From IMG/VR virus record IMGVR_UViG_3300042304_000916, positions 1 to 36,542 of that record: DNA of 36,542 nucleotides. One strand, 5' to 3'. The translations under genes and the position numbers were made by a program. Positions 762 to 34,021 of this stretch are shown here, one piece after another. Position 1 is the stretch's first letter. The number at the start of each line of letters is the position of its first letter. The notes below the pieces were generated by a model. The model was not told where the DNA came from. It saw only the letters and a program-made list of their open reading frames with translations, and did not search any database. This DNA is from a virus.

Positions 762-898
762 CGGTTGTGTAAGAGCTAAGGGTGTACCGGCAATCTGGAG
801 AGAGGGTGTCGGGACTTTTTTTATCACCCCTCCCCATGCGCGCCCCACATGCGCCAAAAAATATGGGTTCCAGAAACCTGATTAGATTTATCCGTTTC

Positions 899-1690
899 CT
901 ACAGGCTGGTGGTGATTACATTCCCAGTTCTCTGGTCAAGTGGTGGTAGTTCCTTTACCACTAAGGCTCTCTGTAGCCATCTATCGGTTCCGTCGTATCT
1001 CGGCTGGAATGGTGCTCTTCCGTGTACACAGGCATGGTTGTTGATAACCAGGATATCCCCCGTCATGAGGGCAATCTTTCGTGTAGCGAGTGAGATTGCT
1101 TTGTTTAGGTGCTCTAGAGCAAGTCTTGCTTGTGGAGTTGTGCCTTGCATGAGGGTCTTATCGTAAATGAGCGAACCCCCATTGAGGATAGAAGTAGTTA
1201 TTGTCCTATCCGGTTGTCTATCATTTTGGAAGGAAATGTCTAGGGAGGTAGTGAAGAGCTTCTCTCTCAGGATTTCTTTGATTCCGCCGCTGAGATTCCT
1301 CAGAATATTGGAAAGCGTTGCAATCGTGGTGAAGGCTTCTGGGTCACCTCGTAAACACATCAGCAAAACATAGTCAGGTCGATAAGGATGGAAGGCCGTC
1401 TCTGTATGAAGCTCCAGTTGCACCTTTGATGACGTGGAAATCTGTTGATACTCAGTCTTGTGGTTAGGTACAAGATTCTGAATCATCATTCCATTATGTT
1501 CTTGCCTATAGCCAATTAAATGACCAAATAGCGCCGCTTTTTCCCTGAGGATATTTGTTTCTGGCAGCACGACATTGTCTGGAGTCATCGGAGTTGGTGG
1601 AACATCTTTACCCGTGAACTGGTTGGGGTACAACTCATATTCAAGAACATTGAATTGATTTAGATTTAAATGAGTGGGGTTGAATATCAT
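899..1690 (-). CDS. Fe(II)/2-oxoglutarate-dependent oxygenase, clavaminate synthase-like
   Basis: The 263-residue product matches the TauD/clavaminate synthase-like superfamily, closest in style to amino-acid hydroxylases such as L-Asn, L-Arg or L-Lys oxygenases. Iron ligands are visible as H95-x-E97, within L-H-T-E-x-A-F-H-P-Y-R-P-D-Y, and H223 in the segment after G-D-I-L-V-I-N-N-H. R238 or R241 is the likely 2-oxoglutarate-binding arginine. The His-x-Glu (not Asp) pair and the P-D-Y-V-L-L-x-C-L-R segment are typical of the clavaminate branch. Family knowledge implies hydroxylation or oxidation of a free or tethered amino acid, but the substrate cannot be read from sequence. Length is near that of a minimal family member, somewhat shorter than the roughly 330-residue bacterial enzymes. 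No clear ribosome binding site precedes the start. Confidence 0.85.
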   Translation of the reverse strand: MIFNPTHLNLNQFNVLEYELYPNQFTGKDVPPTPMTPDNVVLPETNILREKAALFGHLIGYRQEHNGMMIQNLVPNHKTEYQQISTSSKVQLELHTETAFHPYRPDYVLLMCLRGDPEAFTTIATLSNILRNLSGGIKEILREKLFTTSLDISFQNDRQPDRTITTSILNGGSLIYDKTLMQGTTPQARLALEHLNKAISLATRKIALMTGDILVINNHACVHGRAPFQPRYDGTDRWLQRALVVKELPPLDQRTGNVITTSL

Positions 1691-1849
1691 AAAATCGCTT
1701 CTATTTCTGTTTAGATTTATCCATTTTCGTAGATACTAGTACAGTTGTGCCTCTGCCCCAGAAGGAAGTTACAGAAATACCGTACAGGGTCACTGCCCGT
1801 GTTTAACGGAGTTACTGCACTCTTGGCGAGTTGGTTGTATCGTAGCAGT

Positions 1850-2337: not shown

Positions 2338-2481
2338 TTATTCCCACATATCCTTGTTTGGGAGTCCAATATCTTTGCGTATTTTGATAAGACGCGATAT
2401 CCCAGATGCAGTAACCAATGGAAGCAGTAGAAAAAACGTGATTAATTTAACCGTTTCTTCTGCACGGGATTTTTCACTCAT
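2338..2481 (-). CDS. 47-residue membrane protein coupled to ferredoxin
   Basis: The ATG at 2481 overlaps the TGA of the ferredoxin gene by four bases (ATGA), the usual sign of translational coupling. The product has a polar N-terminus with basic and acidic residues, one hydrophobic helix (about residues 13-27) and a basic tail with R-L-I-K-I-R-K, which fits a single-pass protein with a cytoplasmic basic tail. Its function is unknown. The tight coupling suggests that it works with, or is co-regulated with, the ferredoxin, for example as a membrane anchor. That is inference. Confidence 0.5.
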   Translation of the reverse strand: MSEKSRAEETVKLITFFLLLPLVTASGISRLIKIRKDIGLPNKDMWE

Positions 2482-2723
2482 TGTTCAATGAAAATGCACT
2501 CACCAGGGCATTCCTCTGCTGACTCAATGACATCTTCAAGCCTGTCGTCTGAAAAGGATGCTAATCCAGCTGCGCCTTCTGGGTTCCCCACAGCGGCCGC
2601 ATAAATCTTGTCCCCTTCTCTTACATATGCAAGACCGTCCGGCATCATGTGAAAAACATCTGGGGCTATTTCTGCGCATAGTCCGTCTCCAGTGCATAGG
2701 TCTTGGTCAATCCAAACTCGCAT
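2478..2723 (-). CDS. [3Fe-4S]-type ferredoxin
   Basis: The 81-residue protein is a single-cluster ferredoxin of the actinobacterial type. C10 and C16 lie in C-T-G-D-G-L-C, and C72 lies in E-C-P-G-E-C-I-F-I-E near the C-terminus, with a further C76. The position that would be the middle cysteine of a [4Fe-4S] motif is D13, so a [3Fe-4S] cluster is expected from family knowledge. Such ferredoxins donate electrons to cytochrome P450s or other oxygenases in actinobacteria. The copy here is an auxiliary metabolic gene in a phage. The neighbouring 2-oxoglutarate oxygenase does not normally need a ferredoxin, so a partner inside the window is not evident. It is followed, with a 4-bp overlap, by a small membrane protein gene. 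Confidence 0.9.
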   Translation of the reverse strand: MRVWIDQDLCTGDGLCAEIAPDVFHMMPDGLAYVREGDKIYAAAVGNPEGAAGLASFSDDRLEDVIESAEECPGECIFIEQ

Positions 2724-8490: not shown

Positions 8491-10416
8491 ATGTCTTACA
8501 TTGACGACTCTCTCGTTGCTTCCTACTCAACACAAACACCTCCTTGGGGATTTAGCGGTCTTGGTGAAATTGTTTATTTGAGGACTTATTCACGCAAGAA
8601 AGACAACGGTGATTTGGAGAGCTGGCCAGAAACCCTCCAGCGAGTAATCAATGGAGCAATTGAAGTTGGCGCAAAACTTTCACAAGAAGAAGCAGAGAAA
8701 CTCTTTGACCACTGCTTCAATCTTCGTGCATCTTTTTCAGGTCGCTCGCTCTGGCAACTTGGTACGCCGCTTGTCAAGAAGCTCAATGCAACATCGCTAA
8801 ATAATTGCTATTTCACCAATATTGAAAAGATTGAAGACTTTGAAATGTTGTTTGAGTATTTGATGCTCGGTGGAGGTGTTGGATTTTCTGTTGAGCGAGC
8901 AAAGATTCACGACTTACCAAAAGTTCAAGAAGGTGTAGTCATTACCCAAGAGCGAAGTAACGATGCAGACATTATTGTCCCAGACTCCCGTCAGGGTTGG
9001 AAGCGTTTACTTCATGCAGTGCTTAAGTCGTATTTTGAGACCGGCAAATCTTTTAGTTACTCAACGATTTTGATTCGTGAGTTCGGTGCTCCATTGAGTA
9101 CATTTGGCGGAACAGCATCTGGACCCGGTGCCCTAATTGAGGGAATTAAGGACATTTGTGCAGTGATGGAAAACCGTGTTGGCAAGAAACTTCGTTCAAT
9201 TGATGTTCTTGACATCTGCAATATCATCGGTCGAATTGTTGTTTCTGGTTCCTCGCGCCGTTCAGCACAGATTGCAATGGGCGACCCAGACGATGTGTTG
9301 TTCCTTCGTGCAAAGAACTGGGGTTCGGGGAATGTTCCAGCATGGAGAGCAAACTCAAACAACAGTATTTATGCAGACTATTACGAGGAGATTCAGCCAG
9401 AACTCTGGAAGGGTTATGACGGAACTGGAGAGCCTTACGGTTTGCTGAATCGTCGCCTTGCTCGACGCTTTGGTCGTACTGGAGAAGTGAAGGTTGATAA
9501 TTCAATTGAGGGTTTTAACCCATGTGCGGAAATCGCACTTGCGGATGGCGAATCCTGCAACCTTGCAACATTGTTTTTACCGAACATTGATTCCTATGAA
9601 CAATTTGTAGAGATTTCAACTCTTCTGTATAAGGTGCAAAAGCAAATCACTCAGATGTCTTACCCATACGAAAAGACAACAAACATTGTTCGCAAGAATG
9701 CTCGCTTGGGGCAATCCATAACTGGAATCCTGCAGTGTGACAGCGAAAAAATGACATGGCTTTCGGATGGCTATCAGGCTCTCGTTGACTACGATGCAAA
9801 ATTCTCAAAAGAGAATGGATTGCCAACATCGGTAAGACTCACGACAGTTCAGCCTTCGGGAACACTATCCCTTCTCCCAGGAGTGACTCCAGGAATCCAC
9901 CCCGCGTACGCCAAGTACTACATCAGGCGTGTTCGTTTCGGTTCCTCTGACCCACTTGTTGAAGCATGTCGCAAGCGTGGATATAAAGTTCAGTGGGACA
10001 TGGGTCTAGATGGAAGAGAAGACCACACACGTTATGTAGTTGACTTTCCTTGCGAGTCTCCAGAGGGTTCGGTTCTTGCAGCGGATATGACTGCCGTGGA
10101 ACAATTGGAATGGGTAAAGAAAATGCAGGCTGAATGGGCGGACAATGCTGTTTCGGTCACGGTTTATTACCGCAAGGAAGAACTTCCACTTATCCAAGAA
10201 TGGTTGTCAAAGAATTACGATAAGAGTGTGAAGTCCGTTTCATTCTTGCTACATACTGACCACAACTTCGTTCTTCCTCCATACGAAGAAATCACAGAAG
10301 CTGAATACATAAAGTTTGCATCAAAAATTGACTTAACAATTCCGATGGTTCAGCGTTCGTTTGATGGAGAATTGGATTTGGACAACTGCGCAACTGGCGC
10401 ATGCCCGATTAAGTAA
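8491..10416 (+). CDS. nrdJ: Ribonucleotide reductase, class II (adenosylcobalamin-dependent), monomeric
   Basis: The 641-residue product reduces ribonucleotides to deoxyribonucleotides in the cytoplasm, with a radical made from adenosylcobalamin. All catalytic positions of the monomeric Lactobacillus-type ribonucleoside triphosphate reductase are present. C106 (L-N-N-C-Y-F) and C356 form the redox pair, C345 is the thiyl radical site, and E347 (N-P-C-A-E-I) is the general base. The C-terminal shuttle pair is C633 and C638 (C-A-T-G-A-C). The barrel signature P-S-G-T-L-S-L-L-P-G-V-T-P-G-I-H-P is intact. The Lactobacillus enzyme is about 739 residues, so this one is about 100 shorter, the difference lying before the C345 region. 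The ribosome binding site AAGGGG is strong. It supplies dNTPs for phage replication and needs B12 from the host or environment. Confidence 0.95.
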   Translation: MSYIDDSLVASYSTQTPPWGFSGLGEIVYLRTYSRKKDNGDLESWPETLQRVINGAIEVGAKLSQEEAEKLFDHCFNLRASFSGRSLWQLGTPLVKKLNATSLNNCYFTNIEKIEDFEMLFEYLMLGGGVGFSVERAKIHDLPKVQEGVVITQERSNDADIIVPDSRQGWKRLLHAVLKSYFETGKSFSYSTILIREFGAPLSTFGGTASGPGALIEGIKDICAVMENRVGKKLRSIDVLDICNIIGRIVVSGSSRRSAQIAMGDPDDVLFLRAKNWGSGNVPAWRANSNNSIYADYYEEIQPELWKGYDGTGEPYGLLNRRLARRFGRTGEVKVDNSIEGFNPCAEIALADGESCNLATLFLPNIDSYEQFVEISTLLYKVQKQITQMSYPYEKTTNIVRKNARLGQSITGILQCDSEKMTWLSDGYQALVDYDAKFSKENGLPTSVRLTTVQPSGTLSLLPGVTPGIHPAYAKYYIRRVRFGSSDPLVEACRKRGYKVQWDMGLDGREDHTRYVVDFPCESPEGSVLAADMTAVEQLEWVKKMQAEWADNAVSVTVYYRKEELPLIQEWLSKNYDKSVKSVSFLLHTDHNFVLPPYEEITEAEYIKFASKIDLTIPMVQRSFDGELDLDNCATGACPIK

Positions 10417-22223: not shown

Positions 22224-25200
22224 CTATTCTGAACGGAACTTATCAAATTCTTCTGAACTAATTCCCAGCTTCTCCAAGAGCAGTTGTATCTGTGCTGGGC
22301 TCATGGAAAGTGGGTTTCTCCCAGTTGCCTTGCCAGATGACCGTGGGTTGTTTATGAAGTTCTTTGCAGTAGAGATTGATGGGCGACGACCCGTGACTTC
22401 GGCAATTGCCTCAACCACTTGTTGTGGGAACCCTCTTTTGCCTCTAAGTGAGTCAAAAGCCTGATTACTAAAGACATCCGCCAGTGGCATGCTGTCGGTT
22501 CTTCTAACAGAAGTAGCAATTTCAGTTGCATCGCCGTATAGGTCAGAAGCCTTCTTCTTGGACTTCTTTGCCTTCAATAGGGCATCAACCTCTCCTGCGG
22601 TGATACCACGGCTCAGAATTCTCTTCCAAGTCGTTTCACCGAATATGTCAATGTTTTCCTTGATAATCGAATACCGTGAAGCATCCCTGTCAATTCCAAC
22701 CTCTTCAAGAACTGCACTAGCGTCTAGGTAATTTCTTGACTCTGTTGACCTTGGGGCGCGGGTACCGGGGACATCTGGAGCCATATCACCAGTATCTGGG
22801 ATGTTTGCTTCAATGTCTATTGGTTTGCCAGATTCGTCATAATACGAGAGTGGGTCTTTTCCTACGCCCCATAGATTTCTGTCACCATCAACTTGGATAC
22901 GAAGCCTGTCAAGAAGGTAGACATCTCGTGTTCGTGCACCTGGCTTGCGCATCTTTCGCGCCACATCAACTGGCACGCCTAGTTCTGCGGCAAGTTGCTC
23001 GTCTGTCATGTTCTGTTTTCCGCCAAACCTTCTGGCAGCACGATTGACGATTGGCTCAAATCCCCACGAGCGACCACCAGAACTCTCTTCACCAACGACG
23101 ATGTCGCTTGGGAGGATGTCAATTGGTTCGCCTCGTGAACCAAACCCATACTCTGATGCATCTGGTCCGTTACGGCGTTTGCCTGGTCGCTTTTTGGAGC
23201 GCAATCTATCTCCGTCAACATAACTCTGTCTATCTTCTGGGGTCCAATTGGTTTTTGGCACACGTGGACGCTTTTTGTCGCCACGGGAGGCAAGACCGCG
23301 CGTATTTCTGACGTATTGGTCACCTTGCTTGCGCAATGTCATCCTATTGAGTGCATCCCACTGCTTGTCTGACAGTTCACCATTTCTGTCATACTGTCCA
23401 ACGACACTTGTCGTGAACCTATTACCCATTCTTCTGGCAATAGCGATAATTTCATTCTTCTCTTCTCGGCTGAGATTCATTCTGCTCGCAAAACCATCTT
23501 CTGGAGATGGTCCTTCTGGCATCATGTCTTCTTGTTCCATCATGTAATCTTGGGCGGCATCATAAGCCCAGTCCATTGCATCAAGTTCGTCTGGGTCCAT
23601 TGAGTCCCCACCAGAAGCAAGACCGTTTTCATAGACCCGACCGTTTTCGTCAAGTAATGAACCAGTTTGTGGGTGGTCAAATGCTTGAGCCCATACAACC
23701 TTGTTGTCGTCACTCAGCATTGAAGGCTTTAATGATGCTTGGTATGAGGTTTCGCCGAGTTCGTCAGCATAAACATTGTCCCACTGACCAAGGACTCTTG
23801 TCTTTCCCTTGTCCTTGCCACTAGTGATGATTTGCTCTGCTCTTACGAAGTATGTGTCGCTTCCGCCGTCGTAACCAACAATCACTTGCTGATTTCTATT
23901 TACAGGAAGAACCATCTCGTTATTGCGCTTCTTTGCTCGTGTTCCAGAGATTGCCATGAGATTTCCACGACCGATTTGGGAGAGTGCTGTTCTCATATCA
24001 AATTCACTTGGCTCATATCCACCAGATGTCGGCCAGTCGCCACGAGATGCAAGACCTTGAACGGAAACTGCTGGGTTTCCAACAACAGCGATTTCTGGTG
24101 TTTCAAACTCAGCCTTTTCACCGTTAGAGAACTTACTCTTTGCATTAGGTGAAATATCCAAGACATAGTTGACTGCCTTTTGGGCATCGGTCATTGCTTT
24201 TTCCAATGCCTCTGGGTCGTCCTTCAACTTCTTCAACCAAGATGCGAGGTACGGTCCATGATTCTCTTGAATGTTTGGTTCGATGTTGTGCGAAGCCATG
24301 AACATTGCAGATGCAATTTCCGCTACGAGTTCTTCGTATGCATATTCAGGTGTTCCGAAGGTGCCCATTTGTTCTCTTCCGAGACGACCATTTCCACCAG
24401 TCCAGTGCATCAATTCATGTGCAACTGTTGAGTAGTAGCTTCTCGCATCATTAAAGTTCTCAAAGTCTGGAACTTGAATAAAGTCGCCACTTGGTTGGAA
24501 GAATGCCTTATCTCCACCATTTTTAATAACAGCAGGAATCTCGGAAATAGTTTTCTCCAAGTCGGCAACTCTTTCTGCTTCTGGGAGAATTTCTTTCTTA
24601 TCAAAATCATCAGGCATTCCATCAATTTGCTTAAGGTTGAATACCGTTGCAACCTTGAACATGATTCTTCCGTCAGTGGATGTACCATCGGCTTTTTCTT
24701 TGCCTTTAATAAACATCGGAACAAAGATTGTCGTTCCCTTTTCGCCCTTGCGAACCTGACCGCCAAGACCCTGCCACTGGTTGTATGTTGCCCACTTGTT
24801 TGAATCAAACCCACGAGCATCAGCAATTACGGATAGGAAGAACCAGTTTGAACCTGAATACTTTCTTCCAGTCGTGCCGTTTTCTGGCATTCCCGTTCTT
24901 CTCCATGGAAGTTTCCACTTACCAAGGTTTTCAGAATCTTCTAGTGCAGCAATGAGTTGTTTTTGCATTTCTGCAAAAACTTCTTCCTTGGTCTTTCTCT
25001 TTACACCGCTCTCTCCTCTTGAAGAAAATCCACGAGGGGTCAGTCCAAAGACATCACCATCTGAATATCCTCCAAGAACCGAGAGCGGGTCAACTTTTGG
25101 GCGGTCGCCGCCGGTCTTTGGGGTGGAAGGATTTGTTCCTAAGCCAACGATTTTTCTGCGCTTATTTTCAAGGTCGGTTGCTAGTGCGGCCATCTCAAAG

Positions 25201-28200
25201 GCATCCATGTTCTTCGCAAACAGTTTTTCAAAATCGTCTAACGATAGACCTAAATCAGCGAGCATTTCTTCAATTTTGTCTTCACTCAAACCTGGATTAC
25301 TTCTTTCAAGCATCTTTCGTGCCGACTCGTAATAGTCATCCTTGGCTTGTTTGAGGTTTCGTTCAAGGGCAATCAAATTTGCCTTTGCCTCTCCGTCGTA
25401 AATTCTTCCTATTTCTTTGTCAATTTCTCCCACTGTTGCACCATCACGGTCCATTTGGTTAAAGTATGCGCGATTGTTATCAATCATGTCTTCGGCAACT
25501 CTTCTTTTTTGACCTGTTGTCATCTTGGACCACGGTACGGTATTGATTGATGGCTTATATTCTGCCGAATCATCCCAAGTTCCACCCCCAGCTGGTGGGA
25601 GAGCTCTGTCAAGAGCATTGAAGATTGAAGCATTATCATCAAGCGGTGTGTCAACAGACATGGCAGATTGGTAATCCCTATCCAACTTTGATGTTCCGCC
25701 GCGTGACGCGAATCCTTCGCCAGCAGTGCGCCCGCGTTTACGTTCCCAATATGCCTCGTTGTCTAGTTCGCGTTGCCTTTCGATACGAATATCTTCATCT
25801 AGTTTTTTTCGCTCGTCGTCTGGTAGTCCATTAATGAAATCAGCGTAATCTTCGTAGGTGAATTCAGTGTCTTCGTAAAAGCGGTCTATGTCTTCGTCGG
25901 TTGCATAGTTTCCACCATCAACAAATCCTTGTGCATAAGAATCAAGTAAGTCTTCGCTTGGTTCACCATAGGTCGCATCGTATATTTCTTTTTTGGTAAC
26001 CCAATCATTGAGGGTATTAACTGTTGCATCATCAATATCGTCGGCTGTCAATTTTTTACCACGTGAAGCGAATCCGTCTGGTGTGATGTCATTTACATCG
26101 TAAGCGAATGATGCTGCTCGGTCAATTGCTTGCTCCAAAGCCGCACTTCGCTCTTCAATTCCACCGTCATGATTTTTAGAAAGTTCTTCAATGTATGGAA
26201 CTGCACCGCTAAATTGCCTTAGGTACTCTCTTTCACCAAGGATTTCTCTTGCCACTTTTTCTCTTTCATTGATGAAATCAAGCAACTCATCATTGGTTCT
26301 ATCTAATGCATCAGATGCATCTGCTTCATCCATTCCTTCAACATCTGGCATCATCGGTACACGAACACGCTTGCTTCTTGGAGCAGCTGGCTTGGCAAAT
26401 ATCTTGGGTCCGTAGAACTCAATCAATTCGTCAATCCTTTGCTTTCGCTCTTCTGGGTCAGTGATTTCGGCAAGGGATTCTCTGTCATCAGAATGCATTC
26501 TTGAAGGAACAATCCTTTGACCAGTACTGCTCTCGTTGATTGATGCACGAGAGGCGAATCCATCACGACCATTGCGTCGTGCATTCACCTTCTGAATATC
26601 ACCAGTCGTGTATGCACGCTTGTTATAGTTTGTGGCCTTGCCATTTTCGTCAAGGTAGAAACCGTTCTCGTTTGTGCGGTTTGTGATTTTTGGATTTGAC
26701 CGCTCAGCTGGTTCTCCCATTGAGTAGAAAGCTGACTGAGGAATTGCTTCTTCTCTTCTAAAGTCAAAGTCATCTCGCACTCGGCGCAATGTTGCACCAC
26801 GGCTATCTGATGCTTCAAGGTCGTCAACTACTGATTGTGGGACATTTTCATAGATGTAGAACTCGCCGGTTCCTTTTCCATCTCGTCCACGGTATTCGAC
26901 GCGGAGTTCACGCTTATCTGGGTCGTACTGAACTCTGTTAAGTGCGGCGCTAGAGCCAACGTCAACGTTTCTGTAACCCATTCCAAGCGACTCTGCTTGC
27001 ATTTCCATCATTGCGATTTGACGGTCATCGTATGCTCGTGCTTTTGCATCAGCAGTGATTTCGTCAGCTGATGTTCCGCTTCCTGCGTTGATTGCTGAAT
27101 CTACTGCTCGTGTAAAGTAGCGACTCTGCTCGTCTGGCCCAATTTCGTTCCAATGCGAGTCAATCTGTGCCTCATATGAACCTTCACCAAGTTCTGCACT
27201 TGCATCTGCATCTCTATCGGTTCTGTCTGAGCCACTTGCCCTTCGTACCGACTTGGATGCTTTAATTTTGTTGATGACTTTACCCTTTGAACTTGAACTA
27301 GCAAGTTCTTGAGCTTCGTCAGAAGTTACGCCTTCATAGATGTAACTTCCACCAGCATTGCCATCCTTGTCCTTGAAGGTAACAACCAGTTCTTGGGTAT
27401 TCGGGTCATAGTACGACCCGTAAAGAGCGGCACTTCTGCGAACATCAATGTCCTGAATTTTTGATGGCTTCTTCCCTGCGGATGCAGGCTTAGGTGAGCG
27501 AGACTCAAAAATTTGAATCATTCTTTCTTGGACTAGAGAATTTGGTTCGCCGTATTCGTCGCTAAGTTCGTACCCATCAAAACCATCACGCGCAAGACTA
27601 CGTCTAGCTTCATCTGCCAAGTCAGTCAAATCTGATTCAGACAAACTTCCTATTTCGTCACGGAGTTGCAAAACTTGTTCAAGCATGTCGTCTGATTCGG
27701 AATCTCCACGACCATTGATTGCATCAATCGTGCTTGACTTTGTAATCTCAACATCATGATTTCTCTTGACATCATTGATTACTCGACCAATTGAACTAGA
27801 ACCTGCTACTTCGTTGTCAAAGTAATCAGGTGAAACATCTGAGTATGTGTAGTACCTTGCTTCCCCACCAGTTTGACCTGGCTTAAACGCAACATGGAGT
27901 TCACGAGTTTTTCTGTCATAGTGAACTGCTTCAATTGCGCTTGAGTTTGGAGTCTCAACAGTGTCAAAGCGTGAACTGCCGCGTGATGCGAATCCACTCG
28001 TTGATTTACCACTGCTTGAGAAGAGTCTGTCTTCGGGGTAATCAGCATCGTAACCATCTACGCTTGGAATCTCATCAGTATCATACTCAAGGTCTTTGTA
28101 GTTACCTTTGGCAATAGATTCTTCTCTTGAAATAATAAAACTCATTACATCATTGGCTTCTTCAAGAACCTCCGCCAAATCGTCGCCTTGTTCATCTTTC

Positions 28201-31200
28201 TTTTCACCGGCACGAATGAGTTCGTCAACAAGATTAATTGTGTCACGAATCTTTTCTTTCTCATTCTCTGACTCCCACAATGAGGAACCGTCGTAATGTT
28301 CAAGAGCATCAATTTCCTCAAACCTTTTGGCGAGTTCGTTCAAGTCTGACTCAAGACCACCCTCTCCGTCGTCGCCATAAAGGTTGATTGAGTTTGATTC
28401 CAAGTCTTGAATTTTTGCCCAAATGTCACTTGCTTCATCAACCTTTGCTAATTGTGCGGTGCGATACTCGCTATTTCTTTCAATATTTTCTGTTGCTTCA
28501 GAAATTGCTTCATCTAGGCTCTCAAGGAGGTCAATGTCGTCGTCATCATCTGTTACATCGTAAATTGTTGTACTAGAGTCAATCTTTACACCATTGGCTT
28601 CTGCAATTTCTCTAGCGATTCGACTGCGTGTTTCGATTAGTTCTTTGCGCTGTTTAAGCAAGTCAGCATGACGAATGTCCATGTTTGAAGAGTTGCCGTT
28701 GTCTAGTGATGGAATATCCAACAAGTCAGAAACTTCTTCCTTGTATTCATCAGTTGATTTACGGCCACCACGTGAGGCGAATCCAGAGGTGTCATTATCC
28801 TCCATGATGTATCGAAGTTCATCATCAAGTGCGCTGAACTTTTCGTTCTTGTATGCATGTGATTGCCATGCAGATTCAAGAACCTCAAGAAAATCTTCGT
28901 CGCTTAAATTGGTTCTTTCGCTAATTTGTGAATCAGCAAAAGCCTCATTTTTTTCAGATGGTGTCAAACCATTCCAGTTTTCTACTAGAGCTTTTGAGTA
29001 TTCACGTAAAGGTTTTGGAATTCTTGAATCATCCTCTCGTGCGCCAAGTCTGTCTGAGATGAGTTCTTGTAATTTTGCTGCTGATGGTGGTTTACTTCCG
29101 CGTGATGCAAGGCCCATGTCGCCAGCATCGCCAAAGTCAACAAAGTCTGGATGGATTTCTGGGTTGTCCTGCAAGAATTCGTCATAATCAAAACCACCTT
29201 CTTCCAATACATTTTTTACTATGTCCCATCGTCCTTGGTCATATAGGTCGTCTTGAACTTGTTCAAATAACTTTTCTTTTTCCTTACTAGTGAATTCATC
29301 GTATGGACGCATTTCTGGCGTGGTATCACCACGTGAACCAAATCCGCGCTGACGCTCGTTGTAATTATCCGCCGCTGCATCAAGGTAGTTGTCGTAGGCA
29401 AGAGCCATTGCATACAGGGAATCGCCGTCTGCTTCTTTTAGATACTCGTCATGGATTGCATCATTTTCAATCCAGTAGTCGGCAACTCTTTCTGCTTCAT
29501 CCCTATCTGCACCGCTCCCCTTGAGCGCTTCAATTGCTTCTTTTCTGAAGTCTTTTGCAAATCCGTATTTCTCTGGATTCGCCATGAGGTCTTCAATCAT
29601 CGCCTCAGAGGAATGGTCGCGTGCGCCTGGGCGTGGGCTACCAGGGTTGTCTAGATAGTACTGTGCGTCAAGTTCTCCGAGCAAATCATCATTGGAATCA
29701 AGAAATTCTTGGACATCTTCTGGCAACCATTTGCCGAGGTCGTTATTCTTTCCAGGAACATCAAGTCTGTCGCCTCGTGAGGCGAATCCACTACCCCGAA
29801 GATTTGCATAGCTATTAACGTTGTTTAGGACTTCGTTGATTGCAAAGCGTTCGTTTGGCTTTATGGTTGGTCTCATCTTATAGAGGTTGGCGAGTTTTCT
29901 GATGGCGGCTTCCTCTTGTGGGCTTACCTTCCCATCACCTTTTCTCACCTTGTCCAGTCCACTCATTGCCATTCTGTACTCACTCGGTGAGAACTCGTCA
30001 GAAAGGAAGTCTCTGTTCCCTCTCTGTAGAATTCGTTCGCCATCATTTGGCATACGTGAAGCAAAGCCATCTGTTGGCTTGCCATCTCTGCTCTGCGCCT
30101 TACGTACGAATATGCGTTCAATTGCATTAGCGCGAGTCTCACGATTAGAGACACCCTCTGCTTCGTAGTCGCGCCCAATAACGCCAGCGTCACGTTGGAG
30201 AAGAACGAATCTTGCCTCGCCGTATTCGTTGCGTGCTTTTTCAAGTTCCTTCTCAAGTTCAGGAAGTGACATTTCCATCAATGAGCGGTAGTCGGATTCC
30301 ATCTTTTCGTTGCGTCTAGAGTCCTCTTCGTTGAGTCTAGGGTCAAGGACACTCGTCCTCTTTGCGGGTAATAGGTCGGCAATAAATTCTTCATCAGACA
30401 GGTCTAATCTTGCCTGTTTTTTGACCTTCTCTGCTTGCTTTGCTTTTCTTTGTTCGTTAAGAAGCAGTTTCTCAAGTTGAAGCCGTGTTTCAACACCCTC
30501 AAATTTATCTTCGCGTCCAAAGAAGTTAAACTTGTCATCATTCGTAAAACCTCTGCTGGTCTTGATTTTTTCGAGGGCATTGACGGACTCACTTAGATTC
30601 CTAGAGGCACCCAGTTCATTGAGTTCTTCCTTGCTGACATCTTGGAGAACGTAAGTCCGAATTTCTGTGCGTGTGTATTGAATTGCCCCACTTGCATCTG
30701 GCTCCCCCGCCTTCCATCCTCCACCGGTGGAAACAAATAACTCTTTGCTTTTATCGTCGTAAATAAGGTCATTAACAATTTCATCGCTTAAATTAATTTC
30801 TTCGATGGCTCCATCATCTACGACGCCTCTGACTCTACCTGGCTTGATTCTACTCAAAGAGGCAAAGCCATCTACTTCGTCATCTCCTGCATCATCTGCT
30901 GCCATGTACAATTCGTCGTATGTATTCTCGTCTTTGCGCAACCGTTTGACAAATGCATTTGCTTCACTGCGACTCATTCGGTAATTTCTCATCACCTCTT
31001 GCTTGACTTCTTCGTCAGACATTTGCGTGTAATCCATGTAGTCAACGCCATACTCAGAGTCAAGGTAGTTTTCAAAAGAACGTAATTCTTCCTTCGGTGT
31101 TGGCTTGTCGGTTAGTGAGGCCCCGCGTGAGTCAAATCCGCCACGGCTTCTTTCGTAGTCTTCGTAGTCGGGTTCGTACTTGGAATTTTGAGCATCAACC

Positions 31201-33941
31201 ATGTAGTCGTATTGGTCGTCTACGAGGTCACTGAAGAAACGTGAAGCTATTTCATCACTTGCTATTGCCCTAATGGCATCGTCATCAGACTGGTATCTGT
31301 CAAATAAATCTTTGAGTTCAGAATCACTCAGTGGTTCTTTGCTTCGATTATTAAAACTTTCCAACTTGTCAAATTCAACTTCACCATCACCGACATGGTC
31401 AATTATGTATTCTTCAATAAACGAGTCATCAAGTTCGTCGTCATCTGGGTCAATGCCCATATTTGAACCCCAAGGTCCATTACCCTCACCACGCGATGCA
31501 AGACCACGAGCACTATCACGACCTTGTTCAAGGACTAGGTCTTGCTCATCTGCTGAGAGCTTGTCAAAGTCATCTTCTGCGAACATTTCGCCTTGACCAG
31601 CAGCTCGCTGACGGTCACGCTTTGCCTTTGGAGTGTCAAGGTCTGCTGGATTTACTAGGTCAGCAAACTCTTTATCAAGTTGACCGTAGAAGCCTTCTTC
31701 GTATGATGCAAAAATATCTTCAGCATCTGCTTGAAGTTTTGAATCAGTTGACCAGTCGCCCTCAGGAAGAAGGTCACCAATTCTGTCGCTCCAAAGATTT
31801 TCCCCGCCCCACTCACTGGTTAGTGGACCATTTCCGTCCTGAAGCAAAAATGAAACAATTCCATTTTCACGAATGAAGTCTTTATCTTCATCACTTAGAT
31901 TCTTCATGTTGTCTGCAAGAATCTGAGCCCTTCCAGATGCAATGTCTGAACCACGACGACGTGAAGTATCAATTCTGTCCTGTTGTTCTGGCGTTACATC
32001 ACCACGACTACCGAATCCACGCTTTGAACGATTTTTTTGATATTCGTCAAGGAATTCTCCATATTTGGGTTTCTCGTAGCGTGGATTATTGCGACCACTG
32101 AAACCATATCCGAGACGAGTGTCTTCTGCAGCAGTTCCTTCTGGCAAGATGTCACGAACTCCACTGACATCAAATGTTTCTTTGCCGGTTGATTCTGTTC
32201 TCTTTGGTGGAACGAAATCTTTTCCGAACTGTTGCTTGTAGGCATCACGACGTGAGAACTCATGCGAAAGTTTGAAGAGTTCTGCATCTGTCTTTTCTCT
32301 GTCTGAACCGGTTTGTCCACGACGAGCAGCAACAAGTTTCTGACCTTCTGCACGGAGACCATCTTCTGACATGTCCCAGTACTTTGCGAGTCCTTCGTTT
32401 TCTGGTCGACGATTAGCAAGGAACGAAATGTCGTCCATCGTGCGTGGTTGCAGTTCTCCTGCAGCCAATGCTTCTTGACGCTCCGTACCAGAGAGAAGAC
32501 TCGGGTCCTTCGTCGGCTTCTTGCCGGTTCTGATTGTCGGCTTGTCAAGTAGCTCATTTGAGTCACGATTCTTTCCACCAATATCTGGAAGATTCATGTC
32601 TGGCTTCTTAATAGGAATGTACGGTCTCTGGAATGCAGTACCGTCTTGCGCAAATCCGTCGTTGTCGCCGTCAATTGCAAATGGGTTGAACGACTGTGAG
32701 AGGGTTCTTAGGTTCCCAACCGACTGACCGATTGTTTGACCAATCGCCTTAACTGCGGTCTGGAGCGCATCAATTGCTTGTGCAGAGATGCTTCCGTTTA
32801 CAATAATTCCATTGTCTGAATCAGTTGTTGAAAGATTGTGATACTTGAATACCGGCTGAAGCATGCTCTTGGCTTGCACAATGTGACCCTGAGGGATTTC
32901 AATAAGGTGTGCATATGCAGACTTACCAATACCCACTTGACCACCAAGCATTGTGTTCATTTCGTCTTGGTCGTCATCTCGGTACGGAATCTGTTGTGGT
33001 TGCATTGGAACCATTGATTCATCTGCTGGCTTAACTTCAATCTGTTGTTGAACTGGTGGCTTGTTTTGATTTCCAGAATAAGCTTCTGGCTTGCCAAACA
33101 TGAATGTGTTGTAAGCGTCTGGGGTGTGGTAACCAACTCTGTACATAGAAACTTTTCCGTCAGTTGTTGTTCTGCGGAAAACAATGAAACTATCTGTTGC
33201 TTCAACAATGTCAACCTTTGAGCCAGTTCTTTCACTGAGCTCTGATTGGATTTTCTGTGTCTTCTCAGCATCTAATGGTTGTGCAAGACCTTCTGCAAAA
33301 ATATCAAAAGGCTCGTCTTGTTCTTGTTCCTGCTCCTGTGGTGCTGCAATGACAATCATTCTTGGCTGTTGTAGTTGTTCACCCATCATTGACATGCCTG
33401 GGATAATTGGCATCATGTGATTCTTTGAATCGCTCTTAACGGAGATTGTTCCAGTCAATTGATTAGCACCATGAAGCACTGGTGACACTTCGTAGAGCTC
33501 TACTTCTCTGAGAACATTTGCTTGTTGTGCTGTATCAAATGCACCATTGATTGTTTTGTAACCAATAGACCATTCCTGCTCTTCTCCAAAGAATGCAACG
33601 CTCGCAAATGCTTCTTTGCCTTTTTCTGACTGAAGGTTAAATTGAACCTTTGCATACAAACCGCCAATTCCAGCATTTTTCATTTTTGCTGGGAGACGTG
33701 GGTCGCCTGGTGGAACTTCGTACATCTCAAGGACTTTTCCAATTGGGTCATTCCAACTGTGAGCCCATACAACTCTTGGCTTACGACGGGTGAGGCTCTT
33801 GGCAAACGCACCAGTTACAACGATGTCACCAACTGAGTCCTTGTTGCCAATTCCTGCAACGAAACATTCGACAATTCCTTGCAGTTCGTCAAGAGCGATT
33901 GCTCCGCTAGCTGCTGATTTGAATTCAAATTGTTCGTTCAT
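22224..33941 (-). CDS. Giant prohead-protease-led polyprotein with GFASRG motif array, KTSC and ArdC domains
   Basis: The protein has 3905 residues from the ATG at 33941, preceded by GGTGG. An upstream in-frame ATG at 33980 lacks a good ribosome binding site. Residues 1-170 are an S78-family prohead protease, with H61 in V-W-A-H-S-W-N-D-P-I-G-K, S125 in E-W-S-I-G-Y, and E148 or E151 in E-V-E-L-Y-E-V-S-P. A Glu/Gln-rich linker and a mixed region follow. From about residue 429 to 3604 the chain is divided by about 20 copies of G-[F/L]-[A/S/G]-S-R-G. The pieces include KTSC domains (about 1991-2065, 2163-2237 and 2322-2398, with a divergent one at 1036-1130) and an ArdC-like module (2971-3296). 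The C-terminal 300 residues are helical with an HTH-like stretch. The arrangement suggests packaged cargo, with the protease at its head. This is inference. Confidence 0.85.
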   Translation of the reverse strand: MNEQFEFKSAASGAIALDELQGIVECFVAGIGNKDSVGDIVVTGAFAKSLTRRKPRVVWAHSWNDPIGKVLEMYEVPPGDPRLPAKMKNAGIGGLYAKVQFNLQSEKGKEAFASVAFFGEEQEWSIGYKTINGAFDTAQQANVLREVELYEVSPVLHGANQLTGTISVKSDSKNHMMPIIPGMSMMGEQLQQPRMIVIAAPQEQEQEQDEPFDIFAEGLAQPLDAEKTQKIQSELSERTGSKVDIVEATDSFIVFRRTTTDGKVSMYRVGYHTPDAYNTFMFGKPEAYSGNQNKPPVQQQIEVKPADESMVPMQPQQIPYRDDDQDEMNTMLGGQVGIGKSAYAHLIEIPQGHIVQAKSMLQPVFKYHNLSTTDSDNGIIVNGSISAQAIDALQTAVKAIGQTIGQSVGNLRTLSQSFNPFAIDGDNDGFAQDGTAFQRPYIPIKKPDMNLPDIGGKNRDSNELLDKPTIRTGKKPTKDPSLLSGTERQEALAAGELQPRTMDDISFLANRRPENEGLAKYWDMSEDGLRAEGQKLVAARRGQTGSDREKTDAELFKLSHEFSRRDAYKQQFGKDFVPPKRTESTGKETFDVSGVRDILPEGTAAEDTRLGYGFSGRNNPRYEKPKYGEFLDEYQKNRSKRGFGSRGDVTPEQQDRIDTSRRRGSDIASGRAQILADNMKNLSDEDKDFIRENGIVSFLLQDGNGPLTSEWGGENLWSDRIGDLLPEGDWSTDSKLQADAEDIFASYEEGFYGQLDKEFADLVNPADLDTPKAKRDRQRAAGQGEMFAEDDFDKLSADEQDLVLEQGRDSARGLASRGEGNGPWGSNMGIDPDDDELDDSFIEEYIIDHVGDGEVEFDKLESFNNRSKEPLSDSELKDLFDRYQSDDDAIRAIASDEIASRFFSDLVDDQYDYMVDAQNSKYEPDYEDYERSRGGFDSRGASLTDKPTPKEELRSFENYLDSEYGVDYMDYTQMSDEEVKQEVMRNYRMSRSEANAFVKRLRKDENTYDELYMAADDAGDDEVDGFASLSRIKPGRVRGVVDDGAIEEINLSDEIVNDLIYDDKSKELFVSTGGGWKAGEPDASGAIQYTRTEIRTYVLQDVSKEELNELGASRNLSESVNALEKIKTSRGFTNDDKFNFFGREDKFEGVETRLQLEKLLLNEQRKAKQAEKVKKQARLDLSDEEFIADLLPAKRTSVLDPRLNEEDSRRNEKMESDYRSLMEMSLPELEKELEKARNEYGEARFVLLQRDAGVIGRDYEAEGVSNRETRANAIERIFVRKAQSRDGKPTDGFASRMPNDGERILQRGNRDFLSDEFSPSEYRMAMSGLDKVRKGDGKVSPQEEAAIRKLANLYKMRPTIKPNERFAINEVLNNVNSYANLRGSGFASRGDRLDVPGKNNDLGKWLPEDVQEFLDSNDDLLGELDAQYYLDNPGSPRPGARDHSSEAMIEDLMANPEKYGFAKDFRKEAIEALKGSGADRDEAERVADYWIENDAIHDEYLKEADGDSLYAMALAYDNYLDAAADNYNERQRGFGSRGDTTPEMRPYDEFTSKEKEKLFEQVQDDLYDQGRWDIVKNVLEEGGFDYDEFLQDNPEIHPDFVDFGDAGDMGLASRGSKPPSAAKLQELISDRLGAREDDSRIPKPLREYSKALVENWNGLTPSEKNEAFADSQISERTNLSDEDFLEVLESAWQSHAYKNEKFSALDDELRYIMEDNDTSGFASRGGRKSTDEYKEEVSDLLDIPSLDNGNSSNMDIRHADLLKQRKELIETRSRIAREIAEANGVKIDSSTTIYDVTDDDDDIDLLESLDEAISEATENIERNSEYRTAQLAKVDEASDIWAKIQDLESNSINLYGDDGEGGLESDLNELAKRFEEIDALEHYDGSSLWESENEKEKIRDTINLVDELIRAGEKKDEQGDDLAEVLEEANDVMSFIISREESIAKGNYKDLEYDTDEIPSVDGYDADYPEDRLFSSSGKSTSGFASRGSSRFDTVETPNSSAIEAVHYDRKTRELHVAFKPGQTGGEARYYTYSDVSPDYFDNEVAGSSSIGRVINDVKRNHDVEITKSSTIDAINGRGDSESDDMLEQVLQLRDEIGSLSESDLTDLADEARRSLARDGFDGYELSDEYGEPNSLVQERMIQIFESRSPKPASAGKKPSKIQDIDVRRSAALYGSYYDPNTQELVVTFKDKDGNAGGSYIYEGVTSDEAQELASSSSKGKVINKIKASKSVRRASGSDRTDRDADASAELGEGSYEAQIDSHWNEIGPDEQSRYFTRAVDSAINAGSGTSADEITADAKARAYDDRQIAMMEMQAESLGMGYRNVDVGSSAALNRVQYDPDKRELRVEYRGRDGKGTGEFYIYENVPQSVVDDLEASDSRGATLRRVRDDFDFRREEAIPQSAFYSMGEPAERSNPKITNRTNENGFYLDENGKATNYNKRAYTTGDIQKVNARRNGRDGFASRASINESSTGQRIVPSRMHSDDRESLAEITDPEERKQRIDELIEFYGPKIFAKPAAPRSKRVRVPMMPDVEGMDEADASDALDRTNDELLDFINEREKVAREILGEREYLRQFSGAVPYIEELSKNHDGGIEERSAALEQAIDRAASFAYDVNDITPDGFASRGKKLTADDIDDATVNTLNDWVTKKEIYDATYGEPSEDLLDSYAQGFVDGGNYATDEDIDRFYEDTEFTYEDYADFINGLPDDERKKLDEDIRIERQRELDNEAYWERKRGRTAGEGFASRGGTSKLDRDYQSAMSVDTPLDDNASIFNALDRALPPAGGGTWDDSAEYKPSINTVPWSKMTTGQKRRVAEDMIDNNRAYFNQMDRDGATVGEIDKEIGRIYDGEAKANLIALERNLKQAKDDYYESARKMLERSNPGLSEDKIEEMLADLGLSLDDFEKLFAKNMDAFEMAALATDLENKRRKIVGLGTNPSTPKTGGDRPKVDPLSVLGGYSDGDVFGLTPRGFSSRGESGVKRKTKEEVFAEMQKQLIAALEDSENLGKWKLPWRRTGMPENGTTGRKYSGSNWFFLSVIADARGFDSNKWATYNQWQGLGGQVRKGEKGTTIFVPMFIKGKEKADGTSTDGRIMFKVATVFNLKQIDGMPDDFDKKEILPEAERVADLEKTISEIPAVIKNGGDKAFFQPSGDFIQVPDFENFNDARSYYSTVAHELMHWTGGNGRLGREQMGTFGTPEYAYEELVAEIASAMFMASHNIEPNIQENHGPYLASWLKKLKDDPEALEKAMTDAQKAVNYVLDISPNAKSKFSNGEKAEFETPEIAVVGNPAVSVQGLASRGDWPTSGGYEPSEFDMRTALSQIGRGNLMAISGTRAKKRNNEMVLPVNRNQQVIVGYDGGSDTYFVRAEQIITSGKDKGKTRVLGQWDNVYADELGETSYQASLKPSMLSDDNKVVWAQAFDHPQTGSLLDENGRVYENGLASGGDSMDPDELDAMDWAYDAAQDYMMEQEDMMPEGPSPEDGFASRMNLSREEKNEIIAIARRMGNRFTTSVVGQYDRNGELSDKQWDALNRMTLRKQGDQYVRNTRGLASRGDKKRPRVPKTNWTPEDRQSYVDGDRLRSKKRPGKRRNGPDASEYGFGSRGEPIDILPSDIVVGEESSGGRSWGFEPIVNRAARRFGGKQNMTDEQLAAELGVPVDVARKMRKPGARTRDVYLLDRLRIQVDGDRNLWGVGKDPLSYYDESGKPIDIEANIPDTGDMAPDVPGTRAPRSTESRNYLDASAVLEEVGIDRDASRYSIIKENIDIFGETTWKRILSRGITAGEVDALLKAKKSKKKASDLYGDATEIATSVRRTDSMPLADVFSNQAFDSLRGKRGFPQQVVEAIAEVTGRRPSISTAKNFINNPRSSGKATGRNPLSMSPAQIQLLLEKLGISSEEFDKFRSE
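23607..24056 (-). other. ArdC-associated domain inside the polyprotein
   Basis: The interval after the ArdC unit (about 144 residues) reads M-R-T-A-L-S-Q-I-G-R-G-N-L-M-A-I-S-G-T-R, then strands V-L-P-V-N-R-N-Q-Q-V-I-V-G-Y-D and D-T-Y-F-V-R-A-E, and ends Y-A-D-E-L-G-E-T-S-Y-Q-A-S. I recognise this as a small domain of unknown function common in actinophages and actinobacterial plasmids. Its placement directly after ArdC suggests an antidefence or DNA-entry role. That is inference. Confidence 0.6.
24056..25031 (-). other. ArdC-like antirestriction module inside the polyprotein
   Basis: Between two motif copies lies a complete ArdC-type unit of about 325 residues. The N-terminal ssDNA-binding-like domain has W-K-L-P-W-R-R, Y-S-G-S-N-W-F-F-L, W-A-T-Y-N-Q-W-Q-G-L-G-G and V-R-K-G-E-K-G-T. 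The C-terminal zinc peptidase-like domain has H3175-E-L-M-H3179 (bases 24405-24419), then W-T-G-G-N-G-R-L-G-R and E-E-L-V-A-E-I-A-S. ArdC proteins of plasmids counter type I restriction and bind ssDNA. Here the unit ends exactly at the motif copies on both sides, so it could be released as a separate protein. Delivery with phage DNA would give immediate protection, which is inference. Confidence 0.85.
26750..27970 (-). other. Three tandem KTSC domains inside the polyprotein
   Basis: This lies in the longest motif-free interval (478 residues). Three units of about 70 residues share the plan S-[S/A]-A-[I/L]-x3-x-Y-D-x-x-x-[R/Q]-E-L-x-V-x-[F/Y], then Y-x-Y/I-Y-x-x-V, then S-S/R-x-G-x-x-x-x-x-[I/V]. 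This is the KTSC family, known from the end of some lysyl-tRNA synthetases and as stand-alone proteins. Approximate residue ranges are 1991-2065, 2163-2237 and 2322-2398. The copies are clearly different in sequence, so the triplication is old. A fourth, more distant copy may lie at about 30545-30836. Function in the phage is unknown. Confidence 0.75.
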
Positions 33942-34021
33942 TTTCCACCAATCAAATAGAGTGTTTAAATCATAAGACACTTATTTGATTGGGGACTGCA
34001 ACTAATCGCCAAAAAGTTTAT

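What the first reader, a model, noticed from the sequence alone, without database searches (positions are those of the whole stretch)
899..1690. Phage-borne clavaminate-synthase-like oxygenase
The H-x-E...H iron site and P-D-Y-V segment put it with amino-acid hydroxylases rather than with the known phage nucleobase oxygenases of the TET/JBP type. Possible roles are modification of an amino acid attached to phage DNA, of a host metabolite or of an antibiotic-like compound. It lies beside the palindrome region and not with replication genes.
Basis: partly seen in the sequence, partly recalled or inferred. Interest (0 to 1): 0.5.

Follow-up and report, generated by a model that had tools for sequence, protein, structure and literature searches.

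The report
Phage-borne amino-acid hydroxylase-like iron enzyme
This phage gene encodes an apparently intact iron enzyme of the kind that adds a hydroxyl group to a free amino acid, probably lysine or a similar one, and its closest relatives form a viral branch that general family models call TauD, the name of a taurine enzyme.

Summary
[quoted passage not shown] Nearest solved structure: KDO1, an L-lysine 3-hydroxylase (Z 30.8, 2.0 A over 257 residues). dN/dS is 0.09-0.14. Every iron, 2-oxoglutarate and substrate contact mapped from KDO1, including the two aspartates that hold the lysine side chain, is kept in 60 of 60 distinct viral relatives. The viral form lacks ~80 N-terminal residues of cellular members; in a 63-row tree the 31 viral rows form one group, with Acidimicrobiia proteins as sisters. 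There the long form mostly precedes an aldolase-like gene, and the short form lies near Kdo-type sugar genes and an Lrp/AsnC regulator. In 17 of 37 viral groups glycosyltransferases lie within four genes. Best reading: beta-hydroxylation of a free cationic amino acid, lysine likeliest; in many relatives the product may feed a glycan cassette. That last step is inferred, and the window has no adjacent glycosyltransferase. Taurine and TET/JBP readings are not supported.

The parts
899..1690 (-). 263-aa clavaminate-synthase-like Fe(II)/2-oxoglutarate oxygenase; predicted free cationic L-amino acid beta-hydroxylase
1400..1408 (-). codons of the H95-x-E97 iron ligands (KDO1 H178, E180)
   Evidence: sequence, mapping; 60 of 60 viral sequences (scan pattern HTETAFH partly forces this)
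1022..1024 (-). codon of distal iron ligand H223 (KDO1 H314)
   Evidence: 60 of 60 viral, 6 of 6 short and 74 of 74 other bacterial sequences
1238..1240 (-). D151 (KDO1 D234), lid aspartate that holds the side-chain amine of lysine in KDO1
   Evidence: 60 of 60 viral; contact role from PMC6224419
1160..1162 (-). D177 (KDO1 D268), second side-chain aspartate
   Evidence: 60 of 60 viral
1499..1501 (-). E64 (KDO1 E147 in this alignment, taken as logo position P2, alpha-amine contact)
   Evidence: 60 of 60 viral; residue type at P2, its number in KDO1 inferred here
1436..1438 (-). S85 (KDO1 S168), substrate carboxylate contact on the adjacent loop, which has low confidence in the model (83-86), as expected of a mobile loop
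968..982 (-). R237 (2-oxoglutarate) and R241 (substrate carboxylate), KDO1 R328 and R332
   Evidence: 60 of 60 viral (R237 partly forced by scan pattern YDGTDRW)
1707..1722 (-). upstream copy of a 16-base direct repeat (GGATAAATCTAAWCAG on the gene's strand), ending 16 bases before the ATG
   Evidence: its core TAGATTTATCC occurs only twice in the window, both copies flanking this gene
878..893 (-). downstream copy of the same direct repeat, 5 bases after the stop codon
1850..2095 (+). 81-aa unknown protein (cluster c14), divergent from the oxygenase here; within four genes of it in 8 of 37 viral groups
   Evidence: model too weak to assign (pLDDT 61.5)

Best explanation
[quoted passage not shown] Proposed reaction: free L-lysine (or ornithine or arginine) + 2-oxoglutarate + O2 -> 3-hydroxy-L-amino acid + succinate + CO2. 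The H95/E97/H223 triad holds iron; R237 and T121 hold 2-oxoglutarate; R241, S85 and E64/E97 hold the alpha-carboxylate and alpha-amine; D151 and D177 clamp the cationic end of the side chain. Shown: the predicted fold, conserved contacts, purifying selection, a viral clade. Inferred: cationic free amino acid (about 0.7), C3 position (about 0.6), lysine in particular (about 0.4). Role, inferred at about 0.35: the hydroxy amino acid is a building block or decoration in a phage-encoded glycan or surface-modification pathway, because in many relatives the gene directly precedes glycosyltransferase or methyltransferase genes, in some near a VanY lysin, and its bacterial short-form sister lies in a Kdo-type glycan locus.
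For: Nearest solved sequence KDO1, phmmer E 2e-34, profile 5.5e-46. AlphaFold model pLDDT 87.7; KDO1 TM up to 0.87 by query length, Z 30.8. KDO1 contacts identical in 60 of 60 distinct viral sequences, whereas 74 other bacterial sequences vary (E64: Q48/E22; S85: G45/N14/S10; D151: D59). Eight fetched long-form loci of the family of the Ilumatobacteraceae genome G001: a divergent upstream ORF that clusters with an RpiR-type regulator in 8 of 8 (one tested by Pfam), and an ORF that clusters with a GntG/threonine-aldolase-like PLP enzyme on the same strand within 1.2 kb downstream in 6 of 8 (overlapping by 4 bases in L189), 5.3 kb away in one, absent from one (one tested by Pfam and NCBIfam). 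Short forms: Lrp/AsnC-type ORF in 4 of 5 loci L170-L174 (one tested); KDO8P-synthase cluster in 5 of 6 loci L090-L095 and a KpsF-type isomerase cluster in 3 of 6 (one of each tested, both over cut-off). Glycosyltransferase clusters within 4 genes in 17 of 37 viral groups, the next gene in 12 of these; GT2 within 1.5 kb in 7 of 13 groups that have a GT2, 1.35 expected, Monte Carlo p 7e-5.
Against: No activity is shown. KDO1 is only about 30% identical, its place in the tree is unsure (long branch), and its D270 is T179 here, variable in the family. The nearest NCBIfam models are below cut-off. The glycan role rests on relatives: 20 of 37 viral groups show no GT cluster within four genes, 13 of 35 records have no GT2 match, including the window's two sister contigs, and in 6 of 13 groups the GT2 is 7 kb or more away. 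Sister G007 has an epimerase, but only weak, below-cut-off methyltransferase and GT4 matches, about 60 kb away on the contig. One neighbour cluster counted as GT (c36) is just below its Pfam cut-offs, though every group with it also has c27 within four genes. The GT test treats related groups as independent and its 1.5-kb limit was chosen after looking. No PF01212 aldolase in 35 phage records, so the bacterial two-step route is not seen in them.
Confidence: 0.58

Rival explanations
1. Metabolic gene that feeds host catabolism: the phage enzyme beta-hydroxylates lysine or arginine and a host threonine-aldolase-type enzyme splits the product to glycine and an aldehyde, releasing carbon and nitrogen during infection.
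For: Bacterial long-form homologues mostly sit beside such an aldolase-like gene (6 of 8 within 1.2 kb), and the tree places the viral clade next to Acidimicrobiia.
Against: No PF01212 enzyme in 35 phage records. The short-form bacterial sisters, closest to the viral clade, show no aldolase cluster in the short flanks held, but glycan genes. The host is not known.
Confidence: 0.17
2. Hydroxylation of a lysine residue in a protein or peptide (for example a lysine-rich virion protein), followed by glycosylation, as with collagen-type hydroxylysine.
For: A glycosyltransferase is the next gene in 12 of 37 viral groups; small lysine-rich proteins are encoded close by in some (clusters 24 and 28, my reading).
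Against: The conserved pocket includes the contacts that hold a free alpha-carboxylate and alpha-amine; the CSL family groups enzymes active on amino acids and their derivatives (abstract of PMC6224419).
Confidence: 0.12
3. The hydroxy amino acid (or an antimetabolite made from it) acts as a small inhibitory molecule against the host or competing phages.
For: Solved relatives VioC, OrfP, CmnC and CAS serve antibiotic pathways (names; roles recalled); DSL-LC01 also carries a tryptophan-7-halogenase homologue (PMC10611076, passage).
Against: No assembly enzyme was recognised among the neighbour clusters given to Pfam; no dedicated search for peptide synthetases was made.
Confidence: 0.07
4. DNA hypermodification: the enzyme modifies an amino acid or a base linked to phage DNA.
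For: 2-oxoglutarate oxygenases of other families do act on phage bases (recalled). In DSL-LC01 an Fpg/Nei glycosylase, a sugar transferase and a methyltransferase-domain protein lie within about 3 kb, and its paper names a DNA methyltransferase elsewhere in that genome.
Against: HxE triad and amino-acid pocket, no TET/JBP hit in Pfam; no DNA-modification enzyme recognised among the recurrent neighbour clusters given to Pfam.
Confidence: 0.04
5. Taurine dioxygenase (TauD) that relieves sulfur starvation, as phage tauD is read in PMC9469726.
For: Pfam PF02668 hit and the record annotation of DSL-LC01.
Against: PF02668 is a superfamily model. The protein has HxE where TauD has HxD (recalled), and its contacts are those of amino-acid hydroxylases. 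Solved chains labelled TauD/TfdA (9yut, 7tcl) match only weakly (E 0.0015 and 0.012).
Confidence: 0.02

Closest known systems
KDO1, L-lysine 3-hydroxylase (PDB 6f2a, 6f2b, 6f2e, 6f6j), CSL family IPR014503
   Same: Same fold (Z 30.8), same iron, 2-oxoglutarate and lysine contacts residue for residue
   Different: About 30% identical; the phage form lacks the equivalent of KDO1 residues 1-78 (model 5-263 aligns to 79-357), which may cost part of the dimer interface described in PMC6224419; D270 replaced; no activity shown
GntD, L-enduracididine beta-hydroxylase (NCBIfam NF041363)
   Same: Highest-scoring NCBIfam model (167 bits); its pathway partner GntG does a retro-aldol step (PMC10367076, passage), and GntG is the best model for the aldolase-like enzyme next to a bacterial long form
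   Different: Below cut-off 345; no PF01212 enzyme in 35 phage records
OrfP and NapI (arginine), AsnO (asparagine)
   Same: Family, fold and facial triad; both arginines in OrfP and AsnO
   Different: Each differs from the viral set at one or more of E64, S85, D151 (OrfP Q/G/D, NapI L/G/D, AsnO E/N/P) and NapI has K for the second arginine; 26-31% identity
DSL-LC01 gene WJZ48424.1, 'TauD/TfdA family dioxygenase' (OQ999401, Dishui Lake)
   Same: Groups with the viral rows in the trees, 49% identical, next to a VanY gene
   Different: Annotated as TauD; 'dioxygenase' and 'TauD' occur 0 times in the main text of its paper (PMC10611076)
PHROG 18172 (unknown function)
   Same: The only PHROGs family hit at E 0.1 or better
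   Different: 168-position model with no named function

Membership tests
Clavaminate-synthase-like (CSL) oxygenases | 2-His-1-carboxylate triad H-x-E/D...H | tested here: met
   H95, E97, H223; 60 of 60 viral sequences (H95/E97 partly forced by the scan pattern)
Clavaminate-synthase-like (CSL) oxygenases | Two conserved arginines, for 2-oxoglutarate and for substrate carboxylate | tested here: met
   R237 and R241 align with KDO1 R328 and R332
Clavaminate-synthase-like (CSL) oxygenases | CSL jelly-roll fold | tested here: met
   Predicted model; the first 43 rows are CSL enzymes at Z 24-31, the next rows (CarC, TmpA, BBOX1) 18-19
Clavaminate-synthase-like (CSL) oxygenases | Gln/Glu in P2 for the alpha-amine (large majority of groups, not all) | tested here: met
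   E64, 60 of 60 viral (P2; number of the KDO1 residue inferred)
Clavaminate-synthase-like (CSL) oxygenases | Typical but not defining: about 320-360 aa with an N-terminal region ahead of the core | tested here: not met
   Viral median 260 aa (252-355, n=86) against 344 in bacteria (n=77); alignment starts at KDO1 residue 79
L-lysine 3-hydroxylase (KDO1 type) | Lysine contacts S168, E180, D234, S236, D268, R332 | tested here: met
   S85, E97, D151, S153, D177, R241, 60 of 60 (contacts); mapped by sequence alignment, not by distances
L-lysine 3-hydroxylase (KDO1 type) | Turnover of free L-lysine to 3-hydroxylysine | not testable with these tools
   Needs enzyme assay
GntD, VioC, Cs1 equivalogs (NCBIfam) | Score above curated cut-off | tested here: not met
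   167/345, 127/418.6, 138/450
TauD taurine dioxygenase | HxD triad (recalled) | tested here: not met
   HxE in the window and in 60 of 60 viral sequences
TET/JBP nucleobase oxygenases | Match to a TET/JBP family model | tested here: not met
   Only TauD and CsiD matched at E <= 0.1 in Pfam

The most novel reading that the evidence does not exclude
A large, virus-specific and N-terminally trimmed branch of CSL enzymes lets phages make a free hydroxylated cationic amino acid as a dedicated building block for a virus-encoded surface or virion glycan. A good part of what viromics calls phage 'tauD' would then be glycan chemistry, not sulfur metabolism. In one part of the branch the gene moves or is controlled as a unit bounded by a conserved 16-base direct repeat.
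Probability: 0.22. Interest if true: 0.75.

Novelty: new variant of a known kind. Interest (0 to 1): 0.5.

Why it matters
At least one virome study reads phage tauD as a sulfur-starvation gene (PMC9469726, passages: highest in freshwater and halocline layers, many top hits to uncultured freshwater Caudovirales). If a sizeable share of such genes belongs to this clade, which was not tested here, that inference would need revision. A phage-made free hydroxy amino acid tied to glycosyltransferase cassettes would be an unusual kind of phage chemistry, and it is directly testable with one recombinant enzyme.

Tried and rejected
TauD/taurine: rejected on the HxE triad and pocket; no taurine dioxygenase was among the 50 rows, which excludes nothing. 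TET/JBP: no family hit. A phage-borne two-step route with an aldolase: PF01212 searched in 35 records, 0 matches; the control rings in 14 of 14 genomes, over the cut-off in 12. Function of the neighbour c14 (81-116 aa): no Pfam or PHROGs match, model pLDDT 61.5, not searched. Palindromes 638-690 as part of the system: not found in G008. The exact repeat CTGWTTAGATTTATCC in viral contigs gave 36 stretches. Two same-strand copies are seen only in L228 and L200 (the records of L010 and L011) and, counting a variant copy, L212 (the record of L073); L232 has two 10-mer copies on opposite strands. A 16-base pattern may hit by chance about as often in a collection of that size (my estimate, not computed), so no mobile-element family is claimed. 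Viral structure library: best TM by query length 0.60, with remote TauD-like proteins, so the clade seems absent from BFVD. Papers on phage CSL or tauD: searches; I found no description of a phage CSL enzyme in the listings or passages seen, which does not cover subscription journals or preprints. Searches were searches on other points. In the first, quick tree of 83 rows the viral rows needed two changes, with the short bacterial forms inside an unresolved fork with them; only the viral-plus-short group of 44 rows was firm there.

Full report
What is there. The ORF at 899-1690 (-) is exactly as described: ATG start, 263 aa. Pfam matches the broad TauD superfamily (2.8e-14) and, below cut-off, CsiD. 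NCBIfam's three best models are CSL enzymes, all below their curated cut-offs: GntD 167/345, Cs1 138/450, VioC 127/418.6. Among solved structures the nearest sequence is KDO1, L-lysine 3-hydroxylase, at 2e-34, or 5.5e-46 with a seven-sequence profile. The AlphaFold model from the window protein aligned with 34 viral relatives has mean pLDDT 87.7. Foldseek and VIA-align both put KDO1 first: TM 0.87 by query length; Z 30.8, 2.0 A over 257 residues. The best chains of AsnO, VioC, NapI, CmnC, clavaminate synthase and OrfP follow at Z 27.9-29.4, KDO5 at 24.6; carbapenem synthase, TmpA and BBOX1 fall to 18-19.

Active site. PMC6224419 (Results section read) lists the KDO1 contacts. Mapped by alignment, they are identical here: iron H95, E97, H223; 2-oxoglutarate R237 and T121; substrate carboxylate R241 and S85; E97 and S153; side-chain amine D151 and D177; and E64, taken as the P2 Glu/Gln that binds the alpha-amine. 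All are invariant in 60 of 60 distinct viral sequences (from 88 loci). The scan required HTETAFH or YDGTDRW, so H95, E97 and R237 are partly forced; E64, S85, T121, D151, S153, D177, H223 and R241 are not. In 74 other bacterial relatives E64 is Q in 48 and E in 22, S85 is G in 45 and S in 10, and D151 is D in 59. [quoted passage not shown] So a free cationic amino acid is the prediction; lysine is the best single guess. The poorly predicted stretch 83-86 lies in the loop that moves in KDO1. Against a strict KDO1 assignment: about 30% identity, and KDO1 D270 is replaced.

A viral clade. One scan with P0001 gave 7 relatives in 8 matching stretches. A scan with the alignment gave 334 viral stretches that encode a relative, of which the best 80 were kept, and 432 in bacterial and archaeal genomes, best 80 kept; the rest were not examined. 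Viral ORFs have a median of 260 aa (n=86), bacterial ones 344 (n=77): the viral form starts at the equivalent of KDO1 residue 79. In a careful tree of 63 rows the 31 viral rows form one group, weakly supported (88/50, in 90% of 200 bootstrap trees). Six short bacterial forms are its sister; viral and short forms together have 100/99; 13 long forms come next (93/80). The quick tree of 83 rows did not separate the viral rows from the short forms. The six short-form genomes all fall in the family of G001, titled Ilumatobacteraceae; the bifidobacterial title of one is a label of a metagenome bin. Long forms come from that family and from records titled Acidimicrobiales, Iamiaceae or Ferrithrix, or plain Actinomycetota. 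KDO1 sits on a long branch, so its place is unsure. dN/dS among the window and its two closest relatives is 0.09-0.14.

What the bacterial sisters say. In a draw of 150 genomes from the family of G001, 35 had a match at 1e-20 or better. I fetched the surroundings of eight long-form hits. An ORF that clusters with an RpiR-type regulator (HTH_6 plus SIS in the one tested) lies divergently upstream in 8 of 8; the cluster also caught antisense ORFs. An ORF that clusters with a PLP enzyme of the beta-eliminating-lyase fold, whose tested member is closest to GntG and threonine aldolase though below their cut-offs, lies downstream on the same strand within 1.2 kb in 6 of 8, overlapping by 4 bases in one; it is 5.3 kb away in one and not seen in one. 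GntG does the retro-aldol step in guanitoxin synthesis (PMC10367076, passage), and GntD is the model that P0001 matches best, so this pair looks like beta-hydroxylation of a free amino acid followed by cleavage. The short forms lie instead near a KDO8P-synthase cluster (5 of 6 loci), a KpsF-type isomerase cluster (3 of 6), a weak GT8 match and an unknown 410-aa protein, with an Lrp/AsnC-type ORF in 4 of 5 loci (one member of each tested).

What the viral neighbours say. Viral loci were grouped at 90% identity of the oxygenase: 37 groups. Within four genes, 17 have a glycosyltransferase cluster, 9 a methyltransferase, 6 a VanY gene, 5 the 81-aa ferredoxin and 8 the small protein c14. In 12 of the 17 the glycosyltransferase is the next gene, starting 13 bases before to 18 bases after the oxygenase stop. 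One cluster counted as glycosyltransferase (c36) is just below its Pfam cut-offs, but every group that has it also has c27 within four genes. Of 35 records searched for GT2 (PF00535), 22 have one. By group, 7 of 13 have it within 1.5 kb of the oxygenase against 1.35 expected, p 7e-5, with groups treated as independent and the distance chosen afterwards. Negative cases: in 6 of 13 groups it is 7-95 kb away, and 13 of 35 records have no GT2, among them both sister contigs of the window. The window lineage belongs to the set where the gene sits with c14, ferredoxin and a PHROG 3577 protein. Sister G007 carries an epimerase (1.4e-30), a weak methyltransferase and a weak GT4-like match among what look like tail genes. 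The aldolase family was found in 0 of 35 phage records.

Flanking repeat. The 16-base repeat GGATAAATCTAAWCAG flanks the oxygenase in the window (878-893, 1707-1722) and in both sister contigs, with no other exact TAGATTTATCC copy in any of the three. In 406 kb of viral loci (37 group representatives) the 10-mer GATAAATCTA occurs 14 times, 9 of them within 120 bases of the oxygenase ends, always on its strand: four in the near copies L010 and L011, five in L012, L073 and L075, whose proteins are only about 47-63% identical to the window's. With one mismatch, copies also occur away from the gene ends in 5 of 20 records searched (G009, G012, G167, G178, G185), and the upstream copy of L012 is about 280 bases ahead of its start. 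It could be a promoter-like or RNA element, or a cassette border; I do not decide.

Verdict. The enzyme is best described as a viral, N-terminally trimmed CSL amino-acid hydroxylase with a KDO1-type pocket. The reaction is inferred from conserved contacts and family; the role in glycan modification is inferred from neighbours in relatives and remains open for the window's own lineage. The DNA-linked role has no support here. The main consequence is for annotation: a Pfam or 'TauD' label (as in DSL-LC01) points to taurine and sulfur, which the active site does not support.

Noticed in passing
878-893 and 1707-1722: Conserved 16-base direct repeat bounding the oxygenase gene, also in both sister contigs and, as variants, in distant relatives L012, L073 and L075; function unknown.
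   Followed up: partly
22224-33980 (-): Giant 3918-aa ORF next to the portal gene: prohead serine protease near its N-terminus, then KTSC, ArdC N-terminal and MPTase-PolyVal domains; 4109 and 4307 aa in the sister contigs. Looks like a polyvalent protein fused to a maturation protease.
   Followed up: partly
2478-2723 (-): 81-aa single 4Fe-4S ferredoxin (Fer4_15, 6.6e-17) found near the oxygenase in 5 of 37 viral groups and encoded about 10 kb from it in L187, which has a glycosyltransferase cassette.
   Followed up: no
8491-10416 (+): Adenosylcobalamin-dependent ribonucleoside-triphosphate reductase, over the RTPR cut-off; the next gene upstream of the oxygenase in the L044 group and L076.
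   Followed up: no
638-655 and 675-690: Two perfect palindromes of 18 and 16 bases, about 20 bases apart, in an apparently intergenic stretch; not found in G008.
   Followed up: partly
L056:5000-5791 (+): A second TauD-superfamily protein (263 aa, PF02668 1.5e-29) two genes upstream of the oxygenase in some relatives (cluster c45).
   Followed up: no
L184:1516-4837 (-): Epimerase, methyltransferase-like and GT4-like genes (the last two weak matches) among apparent tail genes of the window's sister contig G007.
   Followed up: partly
L071 and L076, just upstream of the oxygenase: The reading frame ahead of the gene translates what looks like the 3' end of a tRNA gene (CNEERVGSNPTKGS), so a tRNA may lie directly upstream.
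   Followed up: no
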